This document shows, one piece after another, positions 17,186 to 33,662 of a stretch of DNA of 64,000 nt. Each line of letters begins with the position of its first letter. Position 1 is the first letter of the stretch. The stretch spans positions 372,001 through 436,000 of the forward strand of contig JAUJOT010000003.1 of the NCBI GenBank assembly GCA_030447505.1. Direction: 5' to 3'. Under the pieces are notes generated by a model. That model worked only from the letters and a program-made list of their open reading frames with translations. It had not been told where the DNA came from and searched no databases. Position numbers and translations under genes: made by a program. This DNA comes from Solirubrobacteraceae bacterium (GTDB lineage: Bacteria > Actinomycetota > Thermoleophilia > Solirubrobacterales > Solirubrobacteraceae).

Positions 17186-17527
17186 CTAGACGCCGAAGCG
17201 GCCGCGGTGCTCATCGATGTAGCGGCTCACCCGTTCCGTCCTCGTCGAGCTCCTTGGCAAAACCGACCGAGGCGGACTTGAGGATCTCGTTCGCGCGGCG
17301 CAGCTCGAAGTTCTCCTGGCGCAACCGCCGGATCTCCTCGCGCTCCTGGCTCGTCGGCAGATCGGGCCGCGGGCCACTGTCGGCCTCGGCCTGACGCACG
17401 CGCTTTCTGACGTCTCCGGGTGCATCCCCAGGTCGGCCGCGACATGCGCGATCGGGCGGCCTGACTCAAGCGCCAGCCGGATCCCACGTTGCATCAACTC
17501 ATCGGGGTACTTCTCCAGTCGTGCCAT
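17186..17527 (-). pseudogene. IS3-family transposase remnant (orfA with start of orfB)
   Basis: The minus strand opens MARLEKYPDELMQRGIRLAL, then GRPIAHVAADLGMHPET, the helix-turn-helix of IS3 OrfA. A frameshift follows. The next frame continues RQAEADSGPRPDLP and EEIRRLRQENFELRRANEIL, the leucine zipper, and then SASVGFAKELD. The first frame resumes with ERVSRYIDEHRGRFGV, the beginning of OrfB, and then stops. Nearly all of the DDE catalytic domain is missing. It marks an insertion scar between recD and the BREX operon. Confidence 0.8.
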
Positions 17528-17730: not shown

Positions 17731-18285
17731 ATGACCCCCGACTCGCCGAACACCCTCGAGATAGTGCGCCTCGTGCTCGGGGTGGCCCGTCTCGGCGAGA
17801 ACGATCTACGCGGCTGGTGGCAAGGCCACGCTCTCGACCGCACCGGCCAGTACGTCCTGTCAAGCATGCTCAGGCGGACTTGGCGGCCGGCGGCCCTCCA
17901 ACTCGATGTCTCGGCCGCTGCGCGTATTCACGACGAGCTGCTCGGCCGATCGAGCGCGCTGCATCTGTTCTCGGACTTGCTGCCATTTCGGCTCTGGGCA
18001 GCCGGCTGGCTCGCCGAGCAGAAGACGTCCGACGCGGGGCACGACCTACTCGCGACCTTCGAGGCATGGACCCTCGACGAGGCCGTCTCCGTGCTGCGCG
18101 ACTGGTGCGACCCAGTCGATACAGCGCCCGGGGAGAGCCTCGGCAACGGGCTGTTGCTCGGCCGACTTGCGGGCAATGAGCTGGAAGATCCAGCGTTGCT
18201 GATGCAGACCGCCCGACGGCTCAGCGTCTCGTACCTAGACCAGACCGGGGCAATACGACCCCCCTACTTCGATCTCGTGCGGTGA
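17731..18285 (+). CDS. brxE: BrxE-like protein, first gene of the BREX operon
   Basis: The 184-residue product matches my recollection of the BrxE family: LEIVRLVLGVARLGENDLRG followed by a WW, then AARIHDELLGRS and ALHLFSDLLPF. This corresponds to the VARLGE...WW...(V/I)HD..(L/I)G...HLF pattern. BrxE is a small protein of unknown biochemical function, known from type 6 BREX loci. The ATG follows a hairpin and lacks a strong ribosome binding site. Its coding end overlaps the brxA start by four bases, so it belongs to the operon. Its presence ahead of an otherwise type 1 gene set is unusual. Confidence 0.7.
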   Translation: MTPDSPNTLEIVRLVLGVARLGENDLRGWWQGHALDRTGQYVLSSMLRRTWRPAALQLDVSAAARIHDELLGRSSALHLFSDLLPFRLWAAGWLAEQKTSDAGHDLLATFEAWTLDEAVSVLRDWCDPVDTAPGESLGNGLLLGRLAGNELEDPALLMQTARRLSVSYLDQTGAIRPPYFDLVR

Positions 18286-19040
18286 GCACGTTCACGTCGA
18301 ACATCCAGAAGGGCGGCGCGTTGCTCGACGACGCTCGGCGAGTCGTGGAGGTCTGGGATCTCGACCAGAACGTGAGCTGGAACCTGAGCCGTATCTCTGA
18401 GGAGAACCTCCTGGCAAAGCCGTCCCGAGCTCGGGCGGACGACGTCCTGCTGCGGGTCCTACGACCGCGGCTAGTCGAGCCCGGTCCGCAGGTGATCGCC
18501 GCCCTGAAGCAGCTGTTGCCGTCGCCGCGAGGCTTCGCCGATGCCTATTACTTCGAGGCGACTCGAGACGACGCGCTCTTGGCGGCGTTCGCCGAGGGCC
18601 CCTTGTTCGAGTGGTGGGAGCGAGGACGCATCGGAGTGGACGTCGAGTCCGTTTCCTCCTGGCTGGCTGAGCTTGCAGAACGTGGCCAGACCCCGCCGTG
18701 GACGGAGACGATCCGGACGAAGGTCGCCAGGGGCCTCCTGGCCGCGCTGCGCGATTTCGGAATCCTGACCGGTGCGGTCCGCAAGGAATTTGCCCCGCCG
18801 TCGCTCAGCATCGCCGGCTTCGGCTACGTCGCGTTCCGACTTTATGAGGAGGGGGCCTCATCGCGTGCGTTGTTCGCAAGCCCGGTCTGGCGACGGTGGC
18901 TCCTCGACGCGGCTCGCGTAACCGAGCTCTTCCACGAGGCTGAGCGCCAAGGCCTGTTGCGCTACTCCTCAGCGGGCAGCGCCGTGCGGGTCGACTGGCT
19001 GCAGGACACGTTGTCGGAGGCGGTCTGTGCCGTTGCGTAG
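18282..19040 (+). CDS. brxA: BREX protein BrxA (DUF1819 family)
   Basis: The 252-residue product starts at a GTG overlapping the brxE stop. The N-terminal FTSNIQKGGALLDDARRVVE then NLLAKPSRARADDVLLRVLR matches BrxA (DUF1819), a small helical protein resembling the RNA-binding antitermination protein NusB. BrxA is conserved in type 1 BREX and is needed for or modulates defence. The central part (ARGLLAALRDFGILTG) and the C-terminal FHEAERQGLLRYSS region agree with the family. The gene overlaps brxB by 14 bases. The position between brxE and brxB supports the call. Confidence 0.85.
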   Translation: MSTFTSNIQKGGALLDDARRVVEVWDLDQNVSWNLSRISEENLLAKPSRARADDVLLRVLRPRLVEPGPQVIAALKQLLPSPRGFADAYYFEATRDDALLAAFAEGPLFEWWERGRIGVDVESVSSWLAELAERGQTPPWTETIRTKVARGLLAALRDFGILTGAVRKEFAPPSLSIAGFGYVAFRLYEEGASSRALFASPVWRRWLLDAARVTELFHEAERQGLLRYSSAGSAVRVDWLQDTLSEAVCAVA

Positions 19041-19617
19041 CGACCTCCGCAGGATCGGTCAGCGGGTCCTCGACTTCTACGCGCGTGGGGGCGAGCCACC
19101 GTATCTCCTGTACGTGTACCCGCCCTCAGACGAATGGGCGGTGCGACGCGACCTCAAGGATCTTCAGCTCTGGCTCGAGGCTCCCGACCAAGGCGTGCGA
19201 TGTGCGGCGATTTCCCTCGCTGATCTGTTCTGGCAGGCACTCGAAGCCGAGGGCTGGATCAACGAACTCGTCAGTCAAGAGCGAGAGGCTGCCGGCGACG
19301 AGAACGGACAGCGCGAGATCTACCGATCGGTGGGCGAAATCCTGCGGGTTTCCCCATCCCTCCCGGAACGCGTCATCGCCGCGGTCGACGAACTCGGTGA
19401 CGAGCGGACCGCCGTTTTCCTGTACCGGGCCGGGGCGCTGTACCCCGCCTATCGCACCTCCACGCTGATCGACGACCTCCGGAGCCGGCTACGCCTTCCG
19501 GTCACGCTGCTCTACCCAGGCGTGATCATCGGCGACTACGGTCTGAAATTCATGGGCCGAACCGAGCCGGCGTATGGCTACCGCGCCCTCATTGTTCCCC
19601 GAGGAGACCATTCGTGA
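19027..19617 (+). CDS. brxB: BREX protein BrxB (DUF1788 family)
   Basis: The 196-residue product includes PPYLLYVYPPSDEWAVRRDL near the N-terminus, which corresponds to the DUF1788 YDP.DE...R.D region. RTAVFLYRAGALYPAYRTST and RLPVTLLYPGVIIGDYGLKF correspond to the C-terminal VFLtG.G.lyP..R...L...L......P...fyPG.y......L.. block. BrxB is an essential small BREX component of unknown activity. The start overlaps brxA and the stop overlaps the brxC start, so all three are tightly coupled. Confidence 0.88.
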   Translation: MPLRSDLRRIGQRVLDFYARGGEPPYLLYVYPPSDEWAVRRDLKDLQLWLEAPDQGVRCAAISLADLFWQALEAEGWINELVSQEREAAGDENGQREIYRSVGEILRVSPSLPERVIAAVDELGDERTAVFLYRAGALYPAYRTSTLIDDLRSRLRLPVTLLYPGVIIGDYGLKFMGRTEPAYGYRALIVPRGDHS

Positions 19618-22600
19618 AGATCAGGGAGCTGTTCCGCGGCGATATCGAGCGTCCGATCGAGACCGTGATCCACGTCGACCTCTCCGACGAGTCGATCGTG
19701 GCTCACGAGATCGAGGAGTACGTCGTCACCGAGAACATCCGAGAGCACCTCGAGGAACTCGTCGACGTCTTCGGCGATACCGCACGCAATCCCAGCGAGT
19801 CGACCAACGTCTGGGTGAGCGGATTCTTCGGCTCCGGCAAGAGCTCCTTCGCCAAAACCGTCGGCTATGCCCTGGACAACCCGCTTATCGATGGTCGCAC
19901 CGCTACCGACCGGCTTCTCGGCCGCGCCAACTCGCACAAGCTCGATGCCCTGCTGAACACCGCTCACACGCTGGTTCCGACGATCGCGGTATTCCTCGAT
20001 CTGGCCAGCGGACGAGACATGCTGCGCGAGGGCGAAAGCCTTGTGCTGCCGGTGTACCGCGGCCTCCTCAAGCGGCTTGGCTACTCATCGAACGAACTGC
20101 TGGCTGAGCTTGAGGTCACGCTCGAGGCAGAGGGTCGTCTTCAGGCCTTCGAAGCGGCCGTGCTCGAAGCGACCGACGGGCGACCGTGGGCGCAGGTCCG
20201 CGATGTCGCTCTGGCCAAGAACTACGCGAGCCGTGCGTTGCACCTCATCGACTCGGCGAACTTCCCGAGCGCGGATTCCTGGGCCAAGGCGGCCGCCGCG
20301 CCAAACATCGATCACAACTGGCTCGCCAACCGCGCTCTCGAACTCCTCGCACGACGCGGCGAGGGAGCGACGCGCCTGGTCTTCGTCGTGGACGAAGTGG
20401 GACAGTACGTCGCGCGGAGCATTCAACGCATGTTCGATCTGCAGGGCCTGGCCGAAGCGTTCCAGAAGAAGCGAGGGCCGCTCTGGCTCGTGGTGACGTC
20501 GCAGGAGCGGCTGAGTGACGTTGTCGACAGCCTCGAGTCGCGGCAGGTCGAGTACGCCCGGGTGCAGGATCGCTTCCCGCTGCGCGTTGATCTGCTCCCG
20601 AGCGACATTCACGAGGTGACCAGCCGCCGGGTACTCGACAAGACCGACGCTGGTCAATCGCTGGTCAGCGAGACCCTCGCCGCTCATCGCAATCAGCTCG
20701 GCGCCCATGTTCGGCTTGAGTCGCCGACCCGCGCGGCGGACATCGCTGAGGACCAGTTCGTGCGGCTGTACCCGCTCGTGCCTTACCAGGTGCAGCTACT
20801 GATCGATGCCGTTTCGGCACGCCGAGCTCAGGGCGGCGGCTCGCCAATGCTCGGTGGCTCGAACCGGACGATCATCAAGCTCGCGCAGCAACTCGTCATC
20901 GATCCGAGCCACGGCCTCGGGGACGACGACGTGGGGGCACTTATCACGCTTGACCGAGCTGCTCAGCTCCTTGAGGAAGCGATCCCGACGTCATGGCGTC
21001 ATGAGATCGAGCAGGTCGCTGACAAGTATGGCGACGGCGCCACCGAGACGCAGGTGATGCGGGCCGTTGCGCTGTGCTCAGACGTCCCTGCGCTTCCGCT
21101 CACCGAGGCCAATCTTGCGGTTCTTCTACACGATCGCATTGGCGGCGAGAGCCGTCGCGGAGACGTCGCAGATGCTGTCGCCGGGCTTGTCGTCGATGAT
21201 CGGCTGCGAGCCGGCGACGACGGCTATCACATCCAATCGCCGGAGCAGAAGGACTGGGAGAAGTCGCGGCGTGGGAAGGAGCCGCGCCCAGCAGACGCGA
21301 TCCGAATCCGAAAGGCACTCGTTCGTCAGGCCCTCGGGGGCTTGAGCGTTACGAAGGGACGGTCGTTCAAGGTCGAGCTGTGGGTAGAGGGCGAGAAGCT
21401 CGCCGACGGCGACGTGGCTCTCGATATCGAGGAAGCCGACGCGACACGTCGCGATCAACTTCGCGGCCAGTCGCGCGACGACACGGCCAAGAATCGGGTC
21501 AGCTGGGTCTACAGCCTCTCCGACGCTGCCTACCAGGCGATCGTCGAGTGGTACCGCAGCGATGAGATGATCAAGGCCAAGGACACGCCGTCGAAGACCG
21601 CTGCCGAGGTCGAGCTACTCGGCGAGGAACGCCAGCGGTTGGGCCGAGTCGAGCGCCAGCTGACCGACCGCCTGGCCCGCGACCTCACGAGTGGACAGGT
21701 CATCTTCCGCGGCAAGGTGGATGAGGCCCCCACCGGAACTCTCATGCAGTCAGCGCAGAAGCTGATGACCGAACGCATCAGCGAGATCTATGACCGCCTC
21801 GACAGCTTCGCCGCCCAGCTGTCCACGAAGGACGTGATGACGGTGCTTCGCACCGACGACCTCGGCACTGTCAACGAGGCGCTAACGGAGAGCGGCATAG
21901 GTCTCGTCCGTCTTACGCCCGAAGGTCATCAGTTCGCCACCGATTCTGGCCCCCTCGATGACCTGCTCAAGTTGGTCAAGAGTGAGATGAGCTTCGGGCA
22001 CGCCGTCACCGGCGCGCTACTCGCGTCGAAGCTGGCTGCTCCGCCGCGCGGGGCTCCGATCGAGGTCGCACAGGCGCTTACCGCCGCCGCGCTGCGAGCT
22101 GGCCTGTTGGAGGTCACGTACCAGGGTTCAAGGATCGGCGATCCATCAGACCATCGGCTGGAGCGGGTGTTCGGCAGGATCAGCGACTTCCGGGGATCGT
22201 CGTTTGCGCCTCCGACCGCCGGCCCGGACATCGAAACGCGAGTGCAGCTCGCGGCCAGTCTCGGGAAGCTCACTGGCACAAAACCGGCAATCGACCCCGC
22301 GGGTCTCGCGGCTGCTCTCAGGCAGTTCTTCGCTCCCGACCGCGAGGCGTGCTCCAAGATCGGCGCCGGTCTGATGGGCGCCGACCTCGCTGTCCCGGAT
22401 TCCGTCAGTCGGCTGCGGAACATCGTCTTTTCGTTTCCGCAGGCGAGCGACGCCGACGTCATCACAACCGCTGCCGGTGCATGGGTCGACCTCGTCGCGG
22501 ACCATGAGACCGTCTGCAAACTGGTGGAGACGCTGGATGACGATCTCCCGTTGGTCCGTGCGGCACGTGCGCAGATCCAAGCCGGCGGCGAGGGGCTCGG

Positions 22601-23105
22601 GTCCGAAGCTACCGCCGGTGTCGGCGAACTTGCCGATCTCCTGGCCACCGGGAACCTGCTCTCGCACCGAGGCGCAATCAAGCAGCTGACCACCAAGGTT
22701 CAAGACGCCCGACGGCATGCGGCGAGCGAGGCAGCTGCCCGCATCACCAGCAAGCTTGACCATGCGCGCGCGGCCATTCGCGCCCAGTTCGCGGAGATGG
22801 ACAGCGGCAAGGTCGATGAGGCTATGCGCCAGCTGGAACACCTAGCGCCACCCGACGAGCCGACTACCGTGCCGCTCGGCGATCTCCTCGCCCGCGCCGA
22901 GCTCGTCGAATCACGCGCAGCCAGCACCGCGCGGGTACTCGAGGAGCTTCAGGCAGCCGGCAATCTCGCGCGGATTCATGTGATGGACTTGGTGAGTGAG
23001 CCCATCACCACCGAGGAAGAGCTCGACGTCGCCCTCGGCCGCATACGTCAAGCCGCTCTCGCCGAACTGGCGCCCCCTGACCCCAAGCAGGTGCGCCTGC
23101 AATGA
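19614..23105 (+). CDS. brxC: BREX P-loop ATPase BrxC
   Basis: The 1163-residue product matches the ~1200 aa of BrxC (PglY-related) ATPases. Walker A GFFGSGKSS lies at residues 70-78 after the typical FRGDIERPIETVIHVDL N-terminus. A Walker B-like strand is seen in TRLVFVVDEVGQYVARS (~residue 260), followed by WLVVTSQERLSDVVDSLESR, an ORC/Cdc6-like sensor region. The C-terminal half is helical with coiled-coil potential (AAARITSKLDHARAAIRAQF). BrxC is required both for host methylation and for phage exclusion in type 1 systems. The GTG start overlaps the brxB stop, and the stop overlaps pglX. Confidence 0.95.
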   Translation: MKIRELFRGDIERPIETVIHVDLSDESIVAHEIEEYVVTENIREHLEELVDVFGDTARNPSESTNVWVSGFFGSGKSSFAKTVGYALDNPLIDGRTATDRLLGRANSHKLDALLNTAHTLVPTIAVFLDLASGRDMLREGESLVLPVYRGLLKRLGYSSNELLAELEVTLEAEGRLQAFEAAVLEATDGRPWAQVRDVALAKNYASRALHLIDSANFPSADSWAKAAAAPNIDHNWLANRALELLARRGEGATRLVFVVDEVGQYVARSIQRMFDLQGLAEAFQKKRGPLWLVVTSQERLSDVVDSLESRQVEYARVQDRFPLRVDLLPSDIHEVTSRRVLDKTDAGQSLVSETLAAHRNQLGAHVRLESPTRAADIAEDQFVRLYPLVPYQVQLLIDAVSARRAQGGGSPMLGGSNRTIIKLAQQLVIDPSHGLGDDDVGALITLDRAAQLLEEAIPTSWRHEIEQVADKYGDGATETQVMRAVALCSDVPALPLTEANLAVLLHDRIGGESRRGDVADAVAGLVVDDRLRAGDDGYHIQSPEQKDWEKSRRGKEPRPADAIRIRKALVRQALGGLSVTKGRSFKVELWVEGEKLADGDVALDIEEADATRRDQLRGQSRDDTAKNRVSWVYSLSDAAYQAIVEWYRSDEMIKAKDTPSKTAAEVELLGEERQRLGRVERQLTDRLARDLTSGQVIFRGKVDEAPTGTLMQSAQKLMTERISEIYDRLDSFAAQLSTKDVMTVLRTDDLGTVNEALTESGIGLVRLTPEGHQFATDSGPLDDLLKLVKSEMSFGHAVTGALLASKLAAPPRGAPIEVAQALTAAALRAGLLEVTYQGSRIGDPSDHRLERVFGRISDFRGSSFAPPTAGPDIETRVQLAASLGKLTGTKPAIDPAGLAAALRQFFAPDREACSKIGAGLMGADLAVPDSVSRLRNIVFSFPQASDADVITTAAGAWVDLVADHETVCKLVETLDDDLPLVRAARAQIQAGGEGLGSEATAGVGELADLLATGNLLSHRGAIKQLTTKVQDARRHAASEAAARITSKLDHARAAIRAQFAEMDSGKVDEAMRQLEHLAPPDEPTTVPLGDLLARAELVESRAASTARVLEELQAAGNLARIHVMDLVSEPITTEEELDVALGRIRQAALAELAPPDPKQVRLQ

Positions 23106-26100
23106 CTGTGACCACTTCACCCACCGGACTTGACTCCGCACAACGAACCCAGCTCGAGCGGCTCGTTAGTCGGGCCCGCGCGGCGCTCGAAGCCGACCTC
23201 GCCGCACAGGCCGAGGGACGCTTCGGCATACATATCGACGGGACGATCGAGGAGGAGCAAGCCCTCCCCGATGACGCGAGCGATCGGGCGACACGCCGCG
23301 ACCTCGTCGAGATCATCGACCACGTCCGATCGCTCGGAGAGTCTCAACCCGAAGCCGTCGCGCGTCTGCTCCGAGAGGCCGCGTTCACACATCTAAACCG
23401 ACTCTTGGCGATTCGGATCGCCGAAGCCATCGGCCTCTTGCCCGAATCGCTGGCGAATGGTCTACGGTCACGCGGGTTCAAGGATCTAGGCGAGATCATG
23501 CCGATCCTCGGCGACGATTACTGGGGTTACCTTCTACTCTGCGGCGACGAACTGGCAGCCGACGCGCCGGCGCTATTTGATCCCCGGAACCCGCTTCTCG
23601 CTCTAGCCCCGAGCACGCCTGCGCTCGAAGAGATCGTCGCGTTGCTGAGCAGCGCCGATGCGACCCAACTCTGGGTCGCGCCCGACACCCTGGGGTGGAC
23701 GTACCAGTTCTTCAACACATCCGACGAGCGGCGCTTGATGCGAGAGGGAGCGACAGCCCCGCGAACCTCGCGCGAACTGGCGGTTCGCAATCAGTTTTTC
23801 ACGCCGCGGTACGTCGTCGACTTCTTGGTGCAGAACACGCTCGGTCGGCGTCTGATCGAGAACGACCCGACGAGCGCCCTGCTCGGTGAGCTGCCGCTTC
23901 TCGTCGACCCACCGACCACCCCGGGCCCGCCACTCGATCTCAGCGAGAGCAGCGTGTTGGACCCGGCATGCGGAAGCGGGCACTTCCTGCTCGGCTGCTA
24001 CGACCTTCTGGAACGCGCCTGGGAGCTACGGGGCGTTCCGCCCTCCGAGTCGGCTCCAGTGATCGTTGCATCGCTCTGGGGTGTTGACATCGATCCCCGT
24101 TGCTCGCAGGTGGCATCCGCCGCCGTGGTGCTGCGAGCACGGCGCCATTGTCGAGATCTTCCGTTGCCGCGGCCAAACATCATCACCGCACGAAGCCTGC
24201 CGGCCGGACCGGCCGCGCTCCCGCACGACGGCCTCACGCCTGCAAAGCAGCGCCTTTTGGCGCGAATCCGCGAAGCGCTCGAAAGCGCGCCGCTGCTAGG
24301 CACACTCCTGAAAGCCGAGGACGCAATCGAACAAGAGATCCGTCATGCAGCGTTCGACGGCGCAGCTGCATCACTGCCGCTGACGGACGACGCCTTCAGC
24401 CAGGTCGAGACCGATCTCATGGCTCACCTCCAAGCCGTCGCTGACCAGGCTTCTTCATCTGTCGCCGAACGACTGCTCGCCGCGGAAGCCGATGACGCCC
24501 TCCGGCTACTCGACGTAGTGCGCAACCGATACGACGTCGTCCTCATGAACCCGCCTTTCGGAGAACCAGTCGCTGAGACCAAGCCCTACCTCCGCGCTGC
24601 CTACCCGTGGATCCCCACGCGCGATTACAACCTTCTCGCGGCATTCGTGGGCCGCGGTTTGGAGTTGTGTAGACCGGATGGTTATGTCGGCGCGATCACT
24701 TCCCGTGCGGGCATGTTCCTGACTACCTCCGAACGATGGCGGCGCGACATACTCCTCGGGAGCCGGATGGTGGCGCTGGCCGATCTAGGGTACGGCGTGA
24801 TGGAAGGCGCCCAGGTTGAGGCGGCCGCATACGTACTTGGCTCGACCCGACACGGCGATGACACCCTTGTGGCGATCCGGGTGTCTCGGGATGCTGAGCG
24901 CCCTTCGGCACTACGAGAGGCGGTGCTAAACGATCGAGGGGGTAGGTCTGACGAACGGATCTTCCGAGTAGCCCTAGCTGACATTGAGCGTATTCCGGGG
25001 GCCCCACTTGCATATTGGGTGGGCGGCTCGGTCCGTGCCATGTTCGTCCGCCATCGTCTGATTGGAAAGAGCTACCCCGTGCGCACCGGGCTCCAATCCG
25101 GTGGGGACGAACAGTGCATTCGCTTGTTCTGGGAGATCGATCCGCGGAGGATCGCTCGGACGCGCGCAGAGACGCTTGCTGGGCTGCGCTGGGCCCCGAT
25201 CGCAAAGGGAGGAGAGAACAATCCGTATTGGAGCGACGTCTTCCTTCTTATCGACTGGAAGAACGACGGCGAACTCGTGAAGAGTCTGCCTGGTGCAGTT
25301 GTGCGAAACTCGGACTATTACTTCCAATCCGGGTTGACATGGACTCGCCGTGCTGCCACTCTGGCCCCTCGTGTATTACCGGCAGGATGCATCATTACGA
25401 CTGAAGGTCCTAGCTGCTTTACCTCTCACGATGATGCCTTGGCCCTCGTGGGCTGGCTAAATCTGCGAGTGACGCGAAGGCTGGCGGATCTATTGACGAG
25501 CGTTGCGGAGGGGGCTATGGCTGCTGGAGGTAGCCCGAAATACGAGGTTGGCGTTGTCCAGCGTCTGCCGTGGCCAGTGGCCGATGATGGGGATCTCTCC
25601 ACAGACGTGATCTCGCTTGTCCGGCGGCTCGTCGAGATGCGGTGCCGCTTCGATGAGGGCGATGAGAGTGCACGTCGGTTCATCGCTCCTGAGCTCTGTC
25701 GGCATGGCGATGGGGGCGTCCCGGACAGGGCTAGGGCGGCCTTGACCCATCGGGAGGAGGTGAGCGCGTGTGCCATAGAAGCGAGCTACGCGCTGGAAAA
25801 TGTCTCCTACCAGCTTATCGATCTAGACGAAGAGGGTCGTCGCTTCGTTGAAACCGAATCGGGACCGCATCCAGGGGCCTACGGTGGCAACGAATGCCAA
25901 GAGGAGCGGTTCAGCGAGCTTTATGGTGGGTCGCTCCAACGACTCACCGATGCTGCTGTACACGCGCGTGGTGTATTTCGATCCCTGACTACAAAGACCG
26001 AGATCGCAAACCGACGGCTGGAGCTCGTTTGCCATGCATTGGGACTATCGGTGCGAGCGGCGGTCGCATGCCGGAAAGAACTTGGCCTCTTGCCTCCAGA

Positions 26101-26947
26101 TGAAGCGAAGCGGGGGGCCGATGACCTGTTGTCGTATCTCGTTGGGATCGCCTTCGGCCGGTGGGACGTTCGGATCGGGGGAGACCCGTCGCTGGCGCCA
26201 GCTCCACCACCGCTGTTCGATCCGGTGCCGCTGTGTCCGCCGGGCATGCTTCTCGGCACCGACGGATTCCCGGTGGGTGATGTGCCGCCGGGCTACCCGC
26301 TAGAGCTCCCGCCCGGACGCTTGTTGTTGGACGAACCGGGACATAGCTGGGATGCGGAAGCAGCGGTTCTGCTGGCGGCCGAAGCTCTCTTCGACGGCGC
26401 TCAGGACCGCGTCTCGGAAATGTTGACAATTCTGGGCCGGAAGACCTTGCGTGATCATCTACGCAGACAGTTCTTCAAGGACCACCTCTCGCGGTACTCC
26501 AAGAGCCGGCGAAAGGCGCCGATCTATTGGCCGCTCAGCGTCCCTTCGAGGAGTTGGGGCGTCTGGATCTACGCGCCGATGCTGAGCCGAGAAACGCTCT
26601 ATGCGGTCGCGAGCGAAGCCGCTCGGCGCGAGCGGCTCGCGGTTGAGGCGATCGCTCGGCTGCAGCGTGAGCAGCAGGAAGGCAATCTCGCCCGGCCAGC
26701 CCGGAAGATCGCCGAGGAGCTCGATTCCGAGGAGAAGCTATCCGAGGAGCTGCGCCGATTTCGGACCGAGGCCGAACGGATTGCCGGGCTCGGATGGAGG
26801 CCGAATCTCGATGACGGCGTCGTTCTCTGTGCTGCACCCCTCGCCGATCTCTTCCCGGCGTGGCCCGATGCAAATAAGGCCCGGGATGAGCTTCGAAACG
26901 GCGACCACGAGTGGGCCGCCGTCGCTCGATGGGCTGAGGACTTGTGA
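23102..26947 (+). CDS. pglX: BREX adenine-specific DNA methyltransferase PglX
   Basis: The product is 1281 residues. The class I SAM-binding motif DPACGSGHFLLG begins at residue 287, and the catalytic N6-adenine motif, here NPPFGEP rather than the more common NPPY, begins at residue 483. The N-terminal region (RNQFFTPRYVVDFLVQNTLG) is the helical domain common to Type IIG/PglX enzymes. The long C-terminal part (~600 residues) should hold the target-recognition region. In BREX this enzyme places N6-methyladenine at a non-palindromic site to mark self DNA. G+C and codon use fall in the middle third (about 24.7-26.1 kb), consistent with a horizontally exchanged recognition domain. Confidence 0.95.
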   Translation: MTVTTSPTGLDSAQRTQLERLVSRARAALEADLAAQAEGRFGIHIDGTIEEEQALPDDASDRATRRDLVEIIDHVRSLGESQPEAVARLLREAAFTHLNRLLAIRIAEAIGLLPESLANGLRSRGFKDLGEIMPILGDDYWGYLLLCGDELAADAPALFDPRNPLLALAPSTPALEEIVALLSSADATQLWVAPDTLGWTYQFFNTSDERRLMREGATAPRTSRELAVRNQFFTPRYVVDFLVQNTLGRRLIENDPTSALLGELPLLVDPPTTPGPPLDLSESSVLDPACGSGHFLLGCYDLLERAWELRGVPPSESAPVIVASLWGVDIDPRCSQVASAAVVLRARRHCRDLPLPRPNIITARSLPAGPAALPHDGLTPAKQRLLARIREALESAPLLGTLLKAEDAIEQEIRHAAFDGAAASLPLTDDAFSQVETDLMAHLQAVADQASSSVAERLLAAEADDALRLLDVVRNRYDVVLMNPPFGEPVAETKPYLRAAYPWIPTRDYNLLAAFVGRGLELCRPDGYVGAITSRAGMFLTTSERWRRDILLGSRMVALADLGYGVMEGAQVEAAAYVLGSTRHGDDTLVAIRVSRDAERPSALREAVLNDRGGRSDERIFRVALADIERIPGAPLAYWVGGSVRAMFVRHRLIGKSYPVRTGLQSGGDEQCIRLFWEIDPRRIARTRAETLAGLRWAPIAKGGENNPYWSDVFLLIDWKNDGELVKSLPGAVVRNSDYYFQSGLTWTRRAATLAPRVLPAGCIITTEGPSCFTSHDDALALVGWLNLRVTRRLADLLTSVAEGAMAAGGSPKYEVGVVQRLPWPVADDGDLSTDVISLVRRLVEMRCRFDEGDESARRFIAPELCRHGDGGVPDRARAALTHREEVSACAIEASYALENVSYQLIDLDEEGRRFVETESGPHPGAYGGNECQEERFSELYGGSLQRLTDAAVHARGVFRSLTTKTEIANRRLELVCHALGLSVRAAVACRKELGLLPPDEAKRGADDLLSYLVGIAFGRWDVRIGGDPSLAPAPPPLFDPVPLCPPGMLLGTDGFPVGDVPPGYPLELPPGRLLLDEPGHSWDAEAAVLLAAEALFDGAQDRVSEMLTILGRKTLRDHLRRQFFKDHLSRYSKSRRKAPIYWPLSVPSRSWGVWIYAPMLSRETLYAVASEAARRERLAVEAIARLQREQQEGNLARPARKIAEELDSEEKLSEELRRFRTEAERIAGLGWRPNLDDGVVLCAAPLADLFPAWPDANKARDELRNGDHEWAAVARWAEDL

Positions 26948-29454
26948 TGACTGCGTTGCGTGACCACCTGGCTGCCGAGCTGGCGAAGAAGGTCAGCCAG
27001 CGCGGCGTGGTGGTCTGGCAGGACACGGACCGTGAGTACGGAGACGTCGCCGGCACGCTGTGCCCGCCTGATGCGCGCTTTGCAGCCTACGACGGCAGCT
27101 GGTACGCGCTACGCCTCGACGTCGAGTCGCTGCTGCGTGCCGACAGCCCACCAAGACTCGTTGTCTACGCACCTGGACCTGCACCGGTAGACGATCCTCT
27201 CGAAGAGGTCCGCGCAGCTGGGATCCGGTTCGCGATCAGGCTCGGAACGCTCGTTAAGAACGCTCTGAAGGGCGAGCTGAGCGAACAACGCCTCACTGAG
27301 ATCGGCAGCCAGGCCCGCACACTGGCGGAGGCCGAATCGGCGGTTGGCGCCGACGCCGGTGGCGATGTCCGTCTCATCGGCATTCTGGGAGCGAGCGATA
27401 GCCGCACGATGGCTTTGCGCATCCTCACGGGCGAGCGCGCGGAGGCTCTAGACGATCAAGCAGCATGGTCTGCTGCCGCCGAACTCCTTGCCCGCCAGAT
27501 CGGAGGTTCGATCGCCGGGGAATGGCACGATGTCCGTCGCGCCGCGCTCCGGCAGATGGCGCTTACCGAGATCGCCATCGCGACCGACGGCCTGCCAGAT
27601 GCGCTGGCACCGGCGTGGGGAACGGTGGATGCTGAGCAGCGCAGGCGCACCGCCGACTTGCTGCAGGCGTGGCAGACCTACCCCGGGCGGCGTGAGGACT
27701 ACGGAGCCGTGGCTCATTTGGTCGATGACGACCTAGGTCTTGCAACCAGCCTGCCATGGGCTGACGGACTCATCGACTGCACCGCGACGCCGGCCCTCGA
27801 AGAGGTCGCGTTCGGAGAGGCGGTCGAGCGGCTCGCCGACAACGACACGGCGGAGGCTTCGGCCCTCGCCGACCGCCGTCTCAAGATGAGCCCGTGGGTC
27901 CAACCTCAAGGGCCGGCCGGCGACGGCTGGGCATCGATCGCTGCCCGCTGGCGTGCGGTGAAGGCCACCGCCGATCTGCGAACGGCTGTCTTGACCGCCC
28001 AAGCACCCGCCCACTGGTCAGCGGGAGAGCTGTTGAGCTGGTACGTCGACGGTGGCTGGGAAGTCGACCGAGCGCACCGTCGGTTGGAGATCGCCCGCAA
28101 CGATCTCCGAGTCCTGGGTGATCTTGAGCCGGCATTCACGGCTGCACGCGTCGCCCACGAGGAGTGGCTCGAGGGGACACTGGTCGCGTTCACGAACGCA
28201 ATCGAGCGCGATGGCTTCGACGTCGGGGGCCTGGCCCGCCAGGGAGACATCCACGATCAGTGGGTGCGGGATGCCGACGCACCCGTCGCGTACGTATGGG
28301 TCGACGCCCTGCGGTTTGAACTCGCCACGGATCTGGCAGACGGTCTTCGCGCTGACGGTCACCGCGTGAAGCTTCACGCGGCGGTGGCGGCCGCGCCGAC
28401 GATCACTCCAGTGGGCATGGCCAATCTCACTCCGGGCGCTGGAGCCGGCCTCTCGCTCGAGCTTGAAGGCACTGACCTCGCGATTCGCGTTGACGGCTCC
28501 ACCGTGGCGAGCGTTGCCGATCGGGTCGCTCGCCTGCGTGCTGCGCACGGCGACAAGGTTCTCGATCGCACGCTTGAGGTCGTCGCTGGCCAGGGCGAGA
28601 AGGAACTCAAGCGCGCACTCGGTGACGCTGATCTGCTGCTCGTCCGGTCCCAAGAGTTGGACGCGGCCGGCGAGTCGGGCATGCTCAACGCAGCCTGGGC
28701 ACAGTTCAACGCAGTGCTCGACCTGTTGCGCAATCTCGTCGCTCGGCTCGGCCAGGCGGGGGTCCGGCGGATCGTCATCGCCGCCGATCATGGCTTCGTC
28801 ACCCTGTCCCGCGGGCTCGGACCCAACCGGTCGATCGACCCGCCCGCAGGCGGCACCGGCCGCCTCCATCGCCGCGGATGGGTCGGCAAGGGCGCGTCAA
28901 CGACTGAGAGCACCCTGCGCGTTTCGCTGGCATCGACGGGCGTACCGAGCGATCTGGACCTGATCGTGCCCCGCGGGCTAGCCGTGTTCAGAGCCGGCGG
29001 CTCGAAGCAGTTCTTCCACGGGGGCCTCTCCCCGCAGGAACTCGTCGTGCCGGTGATCGTCATCGACACCGAACCAGCGCCTGCTCCGAAGCAGCTTCAG
29101 GTCGACGTTTCGGTCGCGGGTGGACGTATTACGACCGGAGCGTTCGCCGCCACCGTGGGATTCGCCGGCGATCTCTTCACTAGCGAGATCACCGTGCGAG
29201 TGGTGGCCAAGGGGGCGAAGGGAAGCGACGTTGTCGCTCGGGTTGTGTCTGGCGACGGTTACGACCCAGCGACGGGTTCGGTTGCTCTGCGGGCCGACGG
29301 CCCATCTCCGGTGCTGACGTTCCAGGTGACCGCAAACCTTGAGCGGGACACAACAGTCGAGATCGAGGTCCTCGATGCCAGGACCGGTGTTCGCCTCGGC
29401 CGCGCCGAAGCCAACGTCTCGGCGAAGATCGTAGTGGAGGATGAGCTCGCGTGA
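26944..29454 (+). CDS. pglZ: BREX phosphatase-like protein PglZ
   Basis: The 836-residue product has the PglZ domain, an alkaline-phosphatase-superfamily fold. The metal-binding Asp is in YVWVDALRFELATDLADGL (D454), and the second metal motif is RRIVIAADHGFVTLSRG (D615-H616). The N-terminal ~400 residues are helical. The C-terminal part (FHGGLSPQELVVPVIVIDTE, then beta-rich sequence) is typical of BREX-1 PglZ proteins. PglZ is essential to BREX. It interacts with the methyltransferase, and nuclease or phosphodiesterase activity has been discussed for the family. It overlaps pglX and brxL by four bases each. Confidence 0.93.
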   Translation: MMTALRDHLAAELAKKVSQRGVVVWQDTDREYGDVAGTLCPPDARFAAYDGSWYALRLDVESLLRADSPPRLVVYAPGPAPVDDPLEEVRAAGIRFAIRLGTLVKNALKGELSEQRLTEIGSQARTLAEAESAVGADAGGDVRLIGILGASDSRTMALRILTGERAEALDDQAAWSAAAELLARQIGGSIAGEWHDVRRAALRQMALTEIAIATDGLPDALAPAWGTVDAEQRRRTADLLQAWQTYPGRREDYGAVAHLVDDDLGLATSLPWADGLIDCTATPALEEVAFGEAVERLADNDTAEASALADRRLKMSPWVQPQGPAGDGWASIAARWRAVKATADLRTAVLTAQAPAHWSAGELLSWYVDGGWEVDRAHRRLEIARNDLRVLGDLEPAFTAARVAHEEWLEGTLVAFTNAIERDGFDVGGLARQGDIHDQWVRDADAPVAYVWVDALRFELATDLADGLRADGHRVKLHAAVAAAPTITPVGMANLTPGAGAGLSLELEGTDLAIRVDGSTVASVADRVARLRAAHGDKVLDRTLEVVAGQGEKELKRALGDADLLLVRSQELDAAGESGMLNAAWAQFNAVLDLLRNLVARLGQAGVRRIVIAADHGFVTLSRGLGPNRSIDPPAGGTGRLHRRGWVGKGASTTESTLRVSLASTGVPSDLDLIVPRGLAVFRAGGSKQFFHGGLSPQELVVPVIVIDTEPAPAPKQLQVDVSVAGGRITTGAFAATVGFAGDLFTSEITVRVVAKGAKGSDVVARVVSGDGYDPATGSVALRADGPSPVLTFQVTANLERDTTVEIEVLDARTGVRLGRAEANVSAKIVVEDELA

Positions 29455-31511
29455 GCGAAGCGACCGCCCCTACCAGCACGCTGATGGACGCGCTCGACCG
29501 CCTGGCCAACGACGCGTTCGCGGGCCGGGTCGTCCGCAAGGACCTCGTCCGGCAAGTGAAGGTCGGCGCCAACGTACCCGTCTACGTCCTTGAGTTCCTG
29601 CTCGGCAAATACTGCGCCTCCGACGACCCCGCGGCGATTGCGACCGGCCTCCAAGTGGTCAACCAGACCCTGCAGGAGAACTTCATCCGCCCCGATGAGT
29701 CCGAGCAGGCGAAGGCGAAGCTCAAGCAGAAGGGCCAACACCGCCTCATCGACAAGGTCGACGTCCGGCTCGTCGCCAGCGAGGACAAGTTCTGGGCCCA
29801 TCTCTCGAGCTTCGGCGACAAGTACGTCCATATCTCCGAGGACGTCGTCTACAAGTACGAGCGCCTACTAGGCGGCGGCGTCTGGTGCCAGCTCGACCTC
29901 CTCTACAACGCGGACGACGAGGAGGAGAAGAAGCGACCGTTCTACATCCGGGCCCTAAAGCCGATCCAAGTCGCCGCGTTCGACATGGACGAATACCTAG
30001 AGGCTCGTCAGCGGTTCACGCGCGATGAGTGGCTTGACTTGATGACGCGGTCGATTGGACTTGAGCCAACGCATTACGACCTGCGCGGAAAGCTTCTCGC
30101 CACCCTGCGGCTCCTACCGATGGTCGAGCGGAACTACAACCTGATCGAACTCGGGCCGTGGGGAACAGGCAAGTCCTTCATCTTCCGTGAATCGTCGCCC
30201 AACGCGATCCTGATCTCGGGCGGCAAAGTCACGGTCGCCCAGCTGTTCGTCAACCTCAGCTCGAGCCGTGTAGGGCTGCTGGGCATGTGGGACGTCGTGG
30301 CCTTCGATGAGGTCGCGGGGCTCGAGATGTCGGACTCGACCGTCGTGAACATGCTCAAGGACTTCATGGAGTCCGGCTCATTCGCGCGAGGCAAGGAGGA
30401 GGTCCCAACTGAGGCATCGATCGTGTTCATCGGGAACACGAGCAAGCCCCATCAAGAGCTCGTCCGAAGCGCGCATCTGTTCGCCGATCTACCGAAGGCG
30501 ATGATCGATCCGGCGTTCCTCGACCGGCTCCACTACTACCTCCCCGGCTGGGAAGCGCCGAAGCTCGAGAAGCGTTTGTTCACCGACCACTTCGGCCTGG
30601 TATCCGACTACTTCGCAGAGGCGCTGCGTCAGCTCCGAAAGCAAAGCCAGGTGAGCGCGATCGACAGCGACTTCGCGCTCGGCTCTCATCTCTCCGCGCG
30701 AGACGAGAAAGCCGTGCGCAAGACCGTGTCGGGTCTGCTGAAGATCCTGCATCCCCATGGGGAATGGACTCACGGAGAGCTACGCGAATACCTCGAGTTC
30801 GCCATGGAGGGGCGCCGACGGGTCAAGGAGCAGTTGAAGAAGCTCGCCGCCCACGACTATGCCAAAACCGCCTTCTCCTACGCGGAGCGCGACACTGGCC
30901 ACGAGATCTGGGTTGATGTGCCCGAGCAGCCGGAAGAGATCGATCCGCTCGCTGAGGACGAGGCTGTGCCAAGCGAAGCTCGCGCAGCAGGTTCAGCGAC
31001 AGACGACGGCGCAACGCGAGGAGCGTCTGTTGCGGAGCTCATCGCCCGCGGTGAAGGAGCTCGCGTCGAGTTCAAGCAGACCGCCCGAGTCAACCTTTCG
31101 ACGAAGCAGCGAGATCAGGTCATCGAGCTAATGGTCGCGAAGTCGATCGCCGGCTTCATGAACGCGCACGGCGGCACTCTTCTCATCGGCGTCACCGATC
31201 GTGGGGAAATCTTCGGGCTCCAGAAGGACCTGAAGACGCTCGGCAGCAAGCAGAACCGAGACGGTTTCGAGCTTTGGCTCACCGGGCTGCTCGACAACAT
31301 GCTCGGACCGACCGCCACTTCGCAAGTGTCGATCTCATACGAAGACTTCCCCGAGGGCAGCGTGTGTCGCATAGACGTGGGTCCTGGCAAGCGGCCCACC
31401 TTCGTGAAGGGTGGCAAGGGAGAGGCCGACCTCTACGTCCGCCTCAATAACTCGACCCGTCTGCTCAATACCGCGGACGCAGTGGAGTACGTAAGCTCGC
31501 ACTGGCGGTAG
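29451..31511 (+). CDS. brxL: BREX protein BrxL with a Schlafen/AlbA_2-like C-terminal domain
   Basis: The product is 686 residues. Residues 1-490 are BrxL-like: the N-terminal DNA-binding region (LVRQVKVGANVPVYVLEFLL), then the AAA+ core with Walker A GPWGTGKS at 235-242, Walker B VVAFDEVAGLEMSDS, sensor IVFIGNTSKPH, and DRLHYYLPGWEAPKLEKRLF. After an acidic linker (~490-520) the protein does not continue into the Lon-like protease domain usual for BrxL. Instead, from about residue 524, it reads SVAELIARGEGARVEFKQTA, then IAGFMNAHGGTLLIGVTDRG and LYVRLNNSTRLLNTADAVEY, the signature of an AlbA_2/Schlafen-type domain. It is the last gene of the operon. BrxL forms a DNA-binding motor needed for phage exclusion. 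Confidence 0.9.
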   Translation: MSEATAPTSTLMDALDRLANDAFAGRVVRKDLVRQVKVGANVPVYVLEFLLGKYCASDDPAAIATGLQVVNQTLQENFIRPDESEQAKAKLKQKGQHRLIDKVDVRLVASEDKFWAHLSSFGDKYVHISEDVVYKYERLLGGGVWCQLDLLYNADDEEEKKRPFYIRALKPIQVAAFDMDEYLEARQRFTRDEWLDLMTRSIGLEPTHYDLRGKLLATLRLLPMVERNYNLIELGPWGTGKSFIFRESSPNAILISGGKVTVAQLFVNLSSSRVGLLGMWDVVAFDEVAGLEMSDSTVVNMLKDFMESGSFARGKEEVPTEASIVFIGNTSKPHQELVRSAHLFADLPKAMIDPAFLDRLHYYLPGWEAPKLEKRLFTDHFGLVSDYFAEALRQLRKQSQVSAIDSDFALGSHLSARDEKAVRKTVSGLLKILHPHGEWTHGELREYLEFAMEGRRRVKEQLKKLAAHDYAKTAFSYAERDTGHEIWVDVPEQPEEIDPLAEDEAVPSEARAAGSATDDGATRGASVAELIARGEGARVEFKQTARVNLSTKQRDQVIELMVAKSIAGFMNAHGGTLLIGVTDRGEIFGLQKDLKTLGSKQNRDGFELWLTGLLDNMLGPTATSQVSISYEDFPEGSVCRIDVGPGKRPTFVKGGKGEADLYVRLNNSTRLLNTADAVEYVSSHWR

Positions 31512-31869: not shown

Positions 31870-32330
31870 GATCGTGTGGATCGATGGGAAGCGCCATTAC
31901 TGGTTCGCGCCCCAACGGCTTGGGATTCGGCGCGCGACCAGCTGCGTGGCTGTACGCATCGGCACGGCACTAGGACTTCTGCTTGCTCACCTGCCTGCCT
32001 CGAGGACGATTTTGCGCTGCCACGAGCAGCTGCTCGTCGACGGCTACAGGAACGGGAACTGGTCTGGCGGGTGGCCGCACCTCGATCCGACCGAACGAGG
32101 AATGCTCGGGCAACGCATCGGACTCGTGCGCTGGGTCGACGTAGCGAATCATTTGGGGCCGGAGCTTCGGGACCCTTCCGGAGCTGGGCGACCTGTGAGA
32201 CGAGACGCCGCGCGTGATCGCGAACCTAGACTTGGCCGGTGATCGATCGATCCGACTTCGAGCGCGCTGGGACGAGGCCGAGGTTGTCCGCATCGTCGTG
32301 GAATTTCGGCGGCGATCCCCGGTTGACGAC
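31870..32330. other. Stretch without a supported gene
   Basis: Open frames on both strands cross this stretch without recognisable domains. On the plus strand a reading near 31808-32200 contains VWIDGKRHYWFAPQRLG and GWPHLDPTERGMLGQRIGLV, which I cannot assign. The minus-strand reading is only the read-through of the IS256 fragment. It probably consists of several short rearranged pieces. Confidence 0.4.
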
Positions 32331-32908
32331 CAGACGGTAACGGTCTCGGCGCCCTCCGGGTGGTCGGACTTCGTGGGGGCGACGAGGATGGCGTGGCGCT
32401 CGACGGCGATGACGAGCTTTGCGAGGTCGCGGTAGCCGATGATCCGTCGGAACTGCTGCTCGGCGACGAGCATGCCGGCGGCGGTCCAGCGCTTGCGCAT
32501 GTCGCCGTCCTGCCAGCGCTTCACGTTGCGCTGCGTGTAGCGGACGATCTCGATCATCGACTCACAGGGGTTCGTTGATGAGAGCGTCGTTGCGAGCTTG
32601 CCAGTGATCCTCAGGCGCATCAGCGTCAGCGTGTCGGCCATGCCTTCGCGCAGCGAGCCGGCGGCATCCGGCCACGTGCGGTCGAGCTCGCCGGCGAGCA
32701 GTTGCAGGCGCTGCTCGGCCAGCTCGGCGTCGGTCAGCGCCCACGACGCCCGCATCCGCGCGCGGACCTGGTCGCGGTCACGCTCGGGCAGCAAGTCGGT
32801 GACGTTGCGCTCCTTGTGGCGATGGCAGCGGTGGACCAGCGCGTGCTCGCCGAAGCGCGATCCTCGACCGGCTGCTGCACCACGCGATCGCGGTACGAGT
32901 GCGCTCAG
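32331..32908 (-). mobile_element. IS256-family transposase C-terminal fragment
   Basis: The minus strand reads RFGEHALVHRCHRHKERNVT then DLLPERDRDQVRARMRASWA, LREGMADTLTLMRLRITGKL, LSSTNPCESMIEIVRYTQRN, VKRWQDGDMRKRWTAAGMLV and AEQQFRRIIGYRDLAKLVIA. This is the end of an IS256/mutator-type transposase, including the CESMIE catalytic Glu and the NVKRWQ.G.M..RWTA block. The N-terminal part is missing. The fragment joins, in the same reading frame, an inverted IS21 copy at 32909. Confidence 0.85.
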
Positions 32909-33662
32909 CCGCCCAGGGCGACGAGCACGCGGTGCATCGCCTCGGCCAGATGCCCGAAGGTCATCTGCTCGCAGAAGACGCCCCTGAAGCGCCCGGAGTG
33001 CGACAGCGCGCCCAGCAGCACGAAACGCCGGCTGCCCCCACGGCGTGTCGTGCAGCTCCAGCCAGTCCCACTGGATCTCCTCGCCGGCAGGATGGTCGAT
33101 CTCGACCGTCACCGCCTGACCGCGGTGGTGCTCGCAGACCAAGCAGACCGGCCGCAGCTCGAGCCGACGCAACTCGCGAACGAGCGTCGGATAGCTGTGA
33201 TCGAGCCCCGCCTCTGCGAGCTCGCGATGCAGCACCGTCGCGTCCAGGTGCGGGTCATCAACGAACCGCGCCTCGATGTCGCCGCGAAACGGCTCCAGGC
33301 AGCTCGCCGCCGGCGCCCGGTGCTGCCCGCCACCCTCGCCGTTCAGGTACTTGGCGACGGTCTTGCGGTCGCGGCCGGTGTGCCTGGCGATCTGCGACAC
33401 CTTCCAGCCGCGCGCAGCAAGCGCGTGGATCTCCACGTCGTCCTCCTCTGTGAGCATCCCCGCCGGTCCTCCTCCGGTTCATGGCCTAGACACCACGACC
33501 GTGAGGGGACCCCCGACAGAACGCGCACGCGCGCGTGGAAAGCGACTACGGCTCGGCGCTACGACCCTTCGCCTCCGTCGCTCCCCACGCGCGGTCCTCT
33601 ACGCCCTACCGAGGTGGGGAATTCCGATGATCAGCACCGGGGAAGAAGATCGTGATCGCGGC
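32909..33662 (-). repeat. Inverted repeat copy A with IS21-family istA fragment
   Basis: About 754 bp are almost identical, in inverted orientation, to 40467-41220; I found only about four base differences and one indel. It contains the first ~145 codons of an IS21 IstA (LTEEDDVEIHALAARGWKVS, then QIARHTGRDRKTVAKYLNGE and EEIQWDWLELHDTPWG) from 33457 leftwards, plus ~205 bp of shared sequence upstream of the start. The same frameshift after WGQPAF is present in both copies. The fragment stops abruptly at 32909, where IS256 sequence begins. Confidence 0.88.

What the first reader, a model, noticed from the sequence alone, without database searches (positions are those of the whole stretch)
17731..31511. 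BREX operon combining type 1 genes with a type 6 BrxE
The order brxE-brxA-brxB-brxC-pglX-pglZ-brxL, with 4-base overlaps nearly throughout, has the type 1 effector brxL but begins with brxE, a marker of type 6 (which ends in brxD and brxHI instead). No helicase or kinase-like partner remains. It looks like an intermediate or hybrid subtype with all genes apparently intact.
Basis: partly seen in the sequence, partly recalled or inferred. Interest (0 to 1): 0.7.

Follow-up and report, generated by a model that had tools for sequence, protein, structure and literature searches.

The report
BREX operon with Schlafen-tipped BrxL
This is an intact-looking anti-phage BREX operon of a recurring but unnamed lineage that carries the small protein BrxE together with BrxL, and its BrxL has swapped the usual Lon-like tail for a Schlafen-type domain that keeps the residues RNases of this family use for cutting.

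Summary
The operon is real: brxE-brxA-brxB-brxC-pglX-pglZ-brxL, 17731-31511, seven intact genes. The reading as a type 1/type 6 hybrid is only partly right. The first gene belongs to the broad BrxE family (84 bits, cut-off 40) but fails the BREX-6 BrxE model (27 bits, cut-off 80). BrxE plus BrxL is a recurring arrangement, found here in Actinomycetota, Acidobacteriota, Myxococcota, Bacteroidota, a gammaproteobacterium and haloarchaea, and already visible in NCBI annotation. On a BrxC tree BrxE presence needs two changes (shuffles: at least five), and brxL versus brxD-brxHI one. BrxE therefore marks a broad BREX lineage that includes type 6; this operon belongs to a well-supported branch of it. 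The domain also appears on a type-1B BrxL and on type I restriction R subunits. I infer that BrxL delivers a nuclease, most likely an RNase, on sensing phage DNA; no activity was tested. BrxE gives a confident predicted fold with no match found in the PDB.

The parts
17731..18285 (+). brxE, 184 aa, broad BrxE family
   Evidence: NF033447 84.0 bits over cut-off 40; NF033448 (BREX-6 BrxE) 27.3 under cut-off 80; AlphaFold2 model pLDDT 91.1, pTM 0.89
18282..19040 (+). brxA, 252 aa
   Evidence: PF08849 57.2 bits; PADLOC BrxA 83.6 bits
19027..19617 (+). brxB, 196 aa
   Evidence: PF08747 57.1 bits; PADLOC BrxB 84.8 bits
19614..23105 (+). brxC, 1163 aa P-loop ATPase
   Evidence: NF033441 559 bits over cut-off 400; Walker A at residue 70
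23102..26947 (+). pglX, 1281 aa N6-adenine methyltransferase
   Evidence: NF033452 BREX-1 503.7 bits, just over cut-off 500; DPACGSG and NPPF motifs
26944..29454 (+). pglZ, 836 aa
   Evidence: PF08665 50.8 bits; below every typed NCBIfam PglZ cut-off, best BREX-6 180.6 of 400
29451..31511 (+). brxL, 686 aa: BrxL_N, BrxL_ATPase, C-terminal Schlafen AlbA_2
   Evidence: TIGR02653 699.8 bits, aligned to profile position 503 of 675 only; Pfam domains
31053..31466 (+). Schlafen AlbA_2 domain of BrxL, residues 535-672, in place of the Lon-like domain; triad E535, E540, D583
   Evidence: PF04326 2.2e-13; triad invariant in 8 of 8 aligned BrxL; fold Z 9.8-12.1 to Schlafen/SAMD9-type chains (one SLFN14 entry 8.1), next unrelated chain 5.5
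17186..17527 (-). transposase fragment (HTH_Tnp_1), upstream edge of the island
   Evidence: PF01527 20 bits, under the cut-off of 24.1
31970..33457 (-). Mutator-family transposase remnant, downstream edge of the island
   Evidence: PF00872 37.2 bits over residues 205-313

Best explanation
A BREX defence operon of a BrxE-bearing lineage that sits beside type 6 and type 1 and has no name that I found. PglX with the other core proteins methylates host DNA at a BREX motif; BrxA, BrxB, BrxC and PglZ sense unmethylated incoming DNA and load the BrxL ring (inferred from studied type 1 systems). The end of BrxL, which in the studied Acinetobacter protein is a Lon-like domain joining two rings tail to tail, is here a Schlafen AlbA_2 domain with the carboxylate triad complete. 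I infer that ring assembly on phage DNA brings several Schlafen domains together and turns on a nuclease, most likely an RNase hitting tRNA or other RNA, so that DNA sensing is coupled to translation arrest. BrxE, always first in the operon, is inferred to be a small partner of the BrxA-B-C complex with an unrecognised fold. Shown: gene content, domain swap, conservation, phylogenetic pattern, predicted folds. Inferred: nuclease activity, RNA as target, role of BrxE.
For: Profiles for all seven genes. Same order in 7 of 7 distinct loci of this branch in which both ends lie on the contig (window, L004, L020, L023, L024, L025, L030; brxE split in L025), all with BrxL aligned to the window's from residues 8-12 to 685-686. 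BrxL identity to the window 61-75% with invariant E535, E540, FK, E559, D583. Schlafen matches in the PDB by sequence (best 1.1e-5), Foldseek (28 chains at E <= 0.001) and VIA-align (Z 12.1 DIP2311; 11.2 SLFN13, rmsd 3.0 over 122; next unrelated 5.5). The glutamate mutated in the SLFN14 E211A entry 9jr9 lines up with E540. SLFN13 triad E205/E210/D248 is needed for tRNA cleavage (PMC5862951, passages). BrxC tree: this branch 100/100. BrxE changes 2 observed, 5 or more in 300 shuffles.
Against: No activity was measured. The Schlafen model itself is middling (pLDDT 68, parts of residues 167-182 under 50) and Foldseek TM-scores for the 28 best chains are 0.34-0.49. AlbA_2 domains are also known as nucleic-acid binders (PDB entries titled DNA-binding: SAMD9 7ksp, SLFN5 6rr9), so the domain may bind rather than cut. 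The active SLFN13 domain is a pseudo-dimer of two lobes; a single lobe must pair to resemble it. The deep branching between haloarchaeal E-L systems, type 6 and type 1 is weakly resolved (PglZ tree 76/91). A clade of all BrxE-bearing BrxC was not the best tree (lnL 12.1 lower, p-AU 0.075). Five BrxL-Schlafen genomes gave no BrxE match, so the two traits are not strictly tied.
Confidence: 0.6

Rival explanations
1. The Schlafen domain is a structural or nucleic-acid-binding replacement for the Lon-like tail: it pairs the two BrxL rings or holds DNA, and cuts nothing. The system then works like ordinary type 1 BREX, which blocks phage DNA replication.
For: The Lon-like tail of Acinetobacter BrxL joins rings (PMC10164562 passages); several AlbA_2-type domains in the PDB are titled DNA-binding.
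Against: All three triad carboxylates are invariant in 8 of 8 aligned BrxL, and the E-x4-E-F-K and GV-x-D motifs are present in 14 of 14 BrxL-Schlafen rows, including the distant type-1B one (rows L037 and L062 are the same gene); a mere clamp would not need them.
Confidence: 0.3
2. A true hybrid: a type 6 operon lost brxD-brxHI and acquired a type 1 brxL by recombination.
For: PglZ scores best with the BREX-6 model (180.6 bits, against 103 for 1A) while PglX scores best with BREX-1.
Against: BrxL, BrxC and PglZ all support the same branch of E-L systems, with no sign of BrxL nested in classical type 1; E-L systems occur in several deep lineages; one effector change suffices on the BrxC tree, so type 6 may as well be the derived form (direction not resolved).
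Confidence: 0.12
3. An ordinary type 1 BREX with an accessory gene at the front, BrxE being incidental.
For: All six type 1 core genes are present; type 5 and 6 have been proposed to be subtypes of type 1 (PMC12839542, sections 14 and 19 read in full, other passages).
Against: BrxE presence follows the BrxC tree (2 changes; 300 shuffles gave at least 5) and brxE is first in every E-bearing operon seen in full.
Confidence: 0.15

Closest known systems
Type 1 BREX (brxA-brxB-brxC-pglX-pglZ-brxL)
   Same: All six core genes in the same order; PglX and BrxL pass the type 1 or general models
   Different: Extra brxE in front; PglZ fails the type 1 A and B cut-offs (103 of 270, 102 of 400); BrxL ends in a Schlafen domain, not Lon-like or HKD
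Type 6 BREX (brxE-brxA-brxB-brxC-pglX-pglZ-brxD-brxHI; Aulosira laxa plasmid AP018310, Pseudanabaena NZ_CP112876)
   Same: brxE first, same E-A-B-C-X-Z order; PglZ best typed match is BREX-6, under cut-off
   Different: No brxD or brxHI; BrxE fails the BREX-6 equivalog; type 6 BrxC form a separate 100/100 branch
NCBI-annotated BrxE + BrxL operons (Hymenobacter monticola NZ_CP094538, Thioflavicoccus mobilis NC_019941, Halomarina NZ_CP100458, Haloarcula NZ_CP119561, Natronosalvus NZ_CP100395)
   Same: brxE-A-B-C-X-Z-L gene set
   Different: Their BrxL ends in a PLD-like (MIT_C) domain (Hymenobacter, Thioflavicoccus) or a Lon-like domain (Halomarina) (Haloarcula and Natronosalvus not tested); separate branches
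BrxL-HKD fusions of type 1 BREX (1030 of 2913 BrxL taxa in PMC12839542)
   Same: A nuclease-like domain replaces the Lon-like tail of BrxL
   Different: HKD/PLD endoDNase instead of a Schlafen fold
Stand-alone Schlafen + HATPase_c_4 genes in BREX operons (Vibrio plasmid NZ_CP068629; L114)
   Same: Same Pfam domain within a BREX operon, as the survey also reports for separate genes
   Different: Separate gene with an ATPase-like tail, not fused to BrxL; distant in the domain tree
Schlafen family RNases (SLFN11/13/14, SAMD9 tRNase domain)
   Same: Fold and catalytic triad positions
   Different: Single lobe on a bacterial AAA+ ring protein; activity untested

Membership tests
BREX (superfamily) | BrxC-type ATPase and PglZ in one operon with a methyltransferase | tested here: met
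   NF033441 559 bits; PF08665 50.8; NF033452 503.7
BREX type 1 | brxA, brxB, brxC, pglX, pglZ, brxL | tested here: met
BREX type 1 | PglZ of type 1 A or B by NCBIfam cut-off | tested here: not met
   103.2 of 270.35 and 101.8 of 400
BREX type 1 | BrxL with Lon-like or HKD C-terminus | tested here: not met
   SLFN_AlbA_2 instead; Lon_C or PLD-like in 10 of 10 other BrxL tested
BREX type 6 | BrxE of the BREX-6 equivalog | tested here: not met
   27.3 of 80 bits; type 6 Aulosira BrxE 240 bits
BREX type 6 | brxD and brxHI in the operon | tested here: not met
BREX type 6 | PglX and PglZ over the BREX-6 cut-offs | tested here: not met
   298.9 of 900; 180.6 of 400
BrxE family (NF033447) | profile score over 40 bits | tested here: met
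   84.0 bits
Schlafen AlbA_2 domain | Pfam gathering score and fold | tested here: met
   51.2 of 25.3 bits; Z 12.1 to 3lmm, 11.2 to SLFN13
Schlafen RNase | three-carboxylate active site | tested here: met
   E535, E540, D583 invariant in A2; equivalence to E205/E210/D248 read from the alignment
Schlafen RNase | RNA cleavage | not testable with these tools
   needs an assay
BREX | host N6-adenine methylation at a non-palindromic motif and phage protection | not testable with these tools
   needs methylome and plaque assays

The most novel reading that the evidence does not exclude
BrxE marks an old branch of BREX from which type 6 arose by trading brxL for brxD-brxHI, and one line of that branch turned BrxL into a DNA-triggered Schlafen RNase, making BREX an abortive system that stops translation. 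The same Schlafen module was attached separately to a type-1B BrxL and to type I restriction R subunits, which would make it a general plug-in effector for DNA-sensing motors.
Probability: 0.35. Interest if true: 0.75.

Novelty: new variant of a known kind. Interest (0 to 1): 0.55.

Why it matters
How BREX stops phage is still argued over, and a recent survey describes BrxE, citing the founding study, as exclusive to type 6 and of unknown function. If BrxE is instead a lineage marker shared by BrxL and BrxD-BrxHI systems, the type scheme needs revision and BrxE becomes a core part worth purifying. A BrxL whose tail is a recognisable nuclease-type domain offers a clean test of what BrxL delivers: three point mutations should separate sensing and DNA binding from killing.

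Tried and rejected
BrxE as a relative of BrxA or BrxB: hhalign probabilities 0.08 and 0.25 per cent; dropped. BrxE fold in solved structures: no Foldseek match at E <= 0.001, best E 2.7, VIA-align best Z 2.6; in viral models best E 2.4. This does not show a new fold. BrxE in solved sequences: best E 0.17. BrxE on plasmids with the window protein: none, although diverged BrxE exist there, so that negative reflects sensitivity. BrxE in genome contigs with the window protein: none; replaced by a BrxC alignment. BrxE in viral contigs: none; the Schlafen domain gave one viral contig whose protein is not a BrxL. Repeats around the island: only short chance-like matches, no flanking direct repeat. 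Clade of all BrxE-bearing BrxC: not the best tree, not rejected (p-AU 0.075), and the group was named after seeing the tree. Label caveats: the BrxL tails of E. coli, Mesobacillus, Paraburkholderia, Polaromonas, Haloarcula and Natronosalvus were set to Lon-like from annotation or kinship, not by Pfam, and those of G022 and G319 from the TIGR02653 match; T1_G228 was left out of the label; brxE was left unscored where off the contig or not seen (L026, Pseudanabaena, Vibrio). The ORF I sent for L124 as BrxE was the wrong one; its BrxE rests.
Full report
Observation. The seven ORFs are at the stated coordinates on the + strand without internal stops. Five of six junctions overlap by 4 bases, brxA/brxB by 14. 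Profile searches name every gene and the expected motifs of BrxC, PglX, PglZ and BrxL are intact. The operon has G+C 62-67% against 75% in the neighbouring recB/recD genes (recB named by eye, recD) and lies between transposase remnants, as expected of a mobile defence island. There is no brxD or brxHI in the window, no BrxD match in the genome, and only distant helicases for BrxHI elsewhere.

BrxE. The first gene passes the broad NCBIfam BrxE family (84.0 bits, cut-off 40) but not the BREX-6 BrxE equivalog (27.3 of 80). The type 6 BrxE of Aulosira passes the latter (240 bits); seven other BrxE proteins from E-L operons or their branch pass only the broad family (9 submitted, one of them a wrongly chosen ORF without a match). 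In an alignment of 31 BrxE a G-E ... W-W ... G signature is nearly invariant. The AlphaFold2 model from 7 sequences is confident (pLDDT 91.1, pTM 0.89) and found no convincing match in the PDB or in viral models. It is not detectably related to BrxA or BrxB.

How rare, and where. BrxE_fam is present in 3 of 396 genomes drawn from the window's phylum, 4 of 247 of one class, 3 over the cut-off, and 19 of 140, 18 over the cut-off, in the phylum of a Myxococcales locus. I fetched the surroundings of those 18: 4 have brxL, 4 have brxD and/or brxHI, 8 look like type 6 by sequence but showed no effector gene in the stretch held, 1 is a truncated locus closest to the Hymenobacter/Thioflavicoccus type, 1 shows only a brxE match. 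A BrxC-based scan of genome contigs gave 8 loci (Mycobacterium sp. E2733, Acidimicrobiia and other MAGs including Myxococcales and Thermoanaerobaculia): 7 of 8 show brxE and 5 of 8 show BrxL with the Schlafen tail, the others being cut by contig ends. Over all loci of this branch with both ends visible, 7 of 7 have both (window, L004, L020, L023, L024, L025, L030); in L025 brxE is split by about 2.4 kb and brxC and pglX are frame-broken.

BrxE with BrxL is visible in NCBI annotation: Hymenobacter monticola, Halomarina, Haloarcula, Natronosalvus and Thioflavicoccus carry a gene named 'BrxE family protein' in front of brxA and a brxL at the end. The Thioflavicoccus case was a small prediction: I had labelled it type 1, the BrxC tree placed it with Hymenobacter, and its brxE then appeared just beyond the stretch first fetched.

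Phylogeny. A BrxC tree of 37 rows gives the window's branch 100/100 support, with four myxococcal E-L systems as nearest group (94/96); type 6 is a separate 100/100 branch and seven classical type 1 systems another. A PglZ tree (35 rows) and a BrxL tree (27 rows) recover the same branch (100/99 each). Scored on the BrxC tree, BrxE presence needs 2 changes over 35 rows (25 with BrxE); 300 shuffles gave a mean of 8.8 and a minimum of 5; on the PglZ tree 3 changes over 32 rows, shuffles 8.1 and 5. The effector (brxL or brxD-brxHI) needs 1 change. Against this: a strict clade of all BrxE-bearing rows is not the best BrxC tree (12.1 log units lower, p-AU 0.075), PglZ puts the haloarchaeal E-L systems with type 1 (100/100), several rows are long, and the root is unknown, so gain and loss cannot be told apart.

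The BrxL tail. BrxL matches the Lon-related profile only to position 503 of 675; residues 535-672 match SLFN_AlbA_2. In eight aligned relatives E535, E540, F541, K542, E559 and D583 are invariant. By sequence the domain finds human SLFN14 and other Schlafens in the PDB. In that alignment the glutamate changed to alanine in entry 9jr9 (SLFN14 E211A) falls on E540, the glutamate five before it on E535, and the second aspartate of GVDD on D583, which I read as the SLFN13 triad E205/E210/D248 needed for tRNA cleavage (PMC5862951, passages only). The predicted domain (pLDDT 68) matches DIP2311 (Z 12.1, rmsd 3.9, 147 residues), SLFN13 (11.2, 3.0, 122) and the SAMD9 tRNase domain (10.1, 3.9, 147), with the next unrelated chain at 5.5.

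Spread of the tail. Of 22 BrxL loci examined in the window's phylum, 7 carry it (one further listed match, G206 contig 402, was not in that check). Only two of those seven genomes (G000, G134) have a BrxE match; the other five (G206, G216, G211, G354, G181) had none, four of them with the BREX locus on a contig under 8 kb. G181 is a type-1B system (PglZ type B 756.7 bits) whose BrxL core sits beside Runella (100/100), so the tail was gained at least twice or moved between BrxL genes; the remaining Schlafen-tailed BrxL form one group (100/99). No plasmid BrxL covers the domain: 337 records matched, 0 over 80% of the query. The closest copies in the window's order sit at the C-terminus of type I restriction R subunits, and stand-alone Schlafen genes lie in BREX operons of Vibrio and one myxococcal E-L system. 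Other BrxL tested end in Lon_C (7 of 10) or a PLD-like domain (3 of 10).

Literature. In the held library (PMC under CC0, CC BY, CC BY-SA) BrxE occurs with BREX in three papers. The 2026 survey PMC12839542 (abstract, sections 14 and 19 in full, other passages) says, citing the founding study, that BrxE is exclusive to type 6, describes Lon-like and HKD BrxL tails and separate Schlafen genes; the passages I saw mention no BrxL-Schlafen fusion and no BrxE in BrxL systems. Its figures and supplements were not seen. Searches for BrxL with Schlafen or AlbA and for Schlafen with type I restriction gave no report of the fusion among their listings. The BrxL structure paper PMC10164562 (passages) is the source for the tail-to-tail ring contact. 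Other papers were seen as listings only, apart from passages.

Verdict. A genuine BREX operon, not a one-off hybrid: a member of a recurring BrxE + BrxL lineage with a new BrxL variant. Identity of the parts is firm; that the tail cuts nucleic acid is likely but untested; RNA as its target is inference from eukaryotic relatives.

Noticed in passing
L008, L011, L012 (same order as the window): Type I restriction R subunits (T1RH-like_C) end in a SLFN_AlbA_2 domain about 38-41% identical to the BrxL tail.
   Followed up: partly
L065:7389-18273 (G181): Type-1B BREX (BrxC, PglX, PglZ type B, BrxL) whose BrxL also ends in a Schlafen domain and has an N-terminal extension of about 160 residues.
   Followed up: partly
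L025:5471-21844: Acidimicrobiia MAG FR_1 copy of the operon is decayed: brxE split by about 2.4 kb, brxC and pglX frame-broken.
   Followed up: no
L143:8201-10522: IMG/VR contig encodes a 773-aa protein with Sigma70_r4, HARE-HTH and a C-terminal Schlafen domain with the same triad motifs.
   Followed up: no
window 36304-38484: AAA ATPase with weak similarity to the IetA defence ATPase (33.7 bits), preceded by a 715-aa ORF without Pfam match.
   Followed up: no
L092:6662-7891 and L114:5323-6561: Stand-alone Schlafen + HATPase_c_4 genes upstream of pglZ in BREX operons of a Vibrio plasmid and of a myxococcal E-L system.
   Followed up: partly
window 14789-17014: RecD-type helicase (RecD_N, 50.4 bits) directly upstream of the island.
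   Followed up: no
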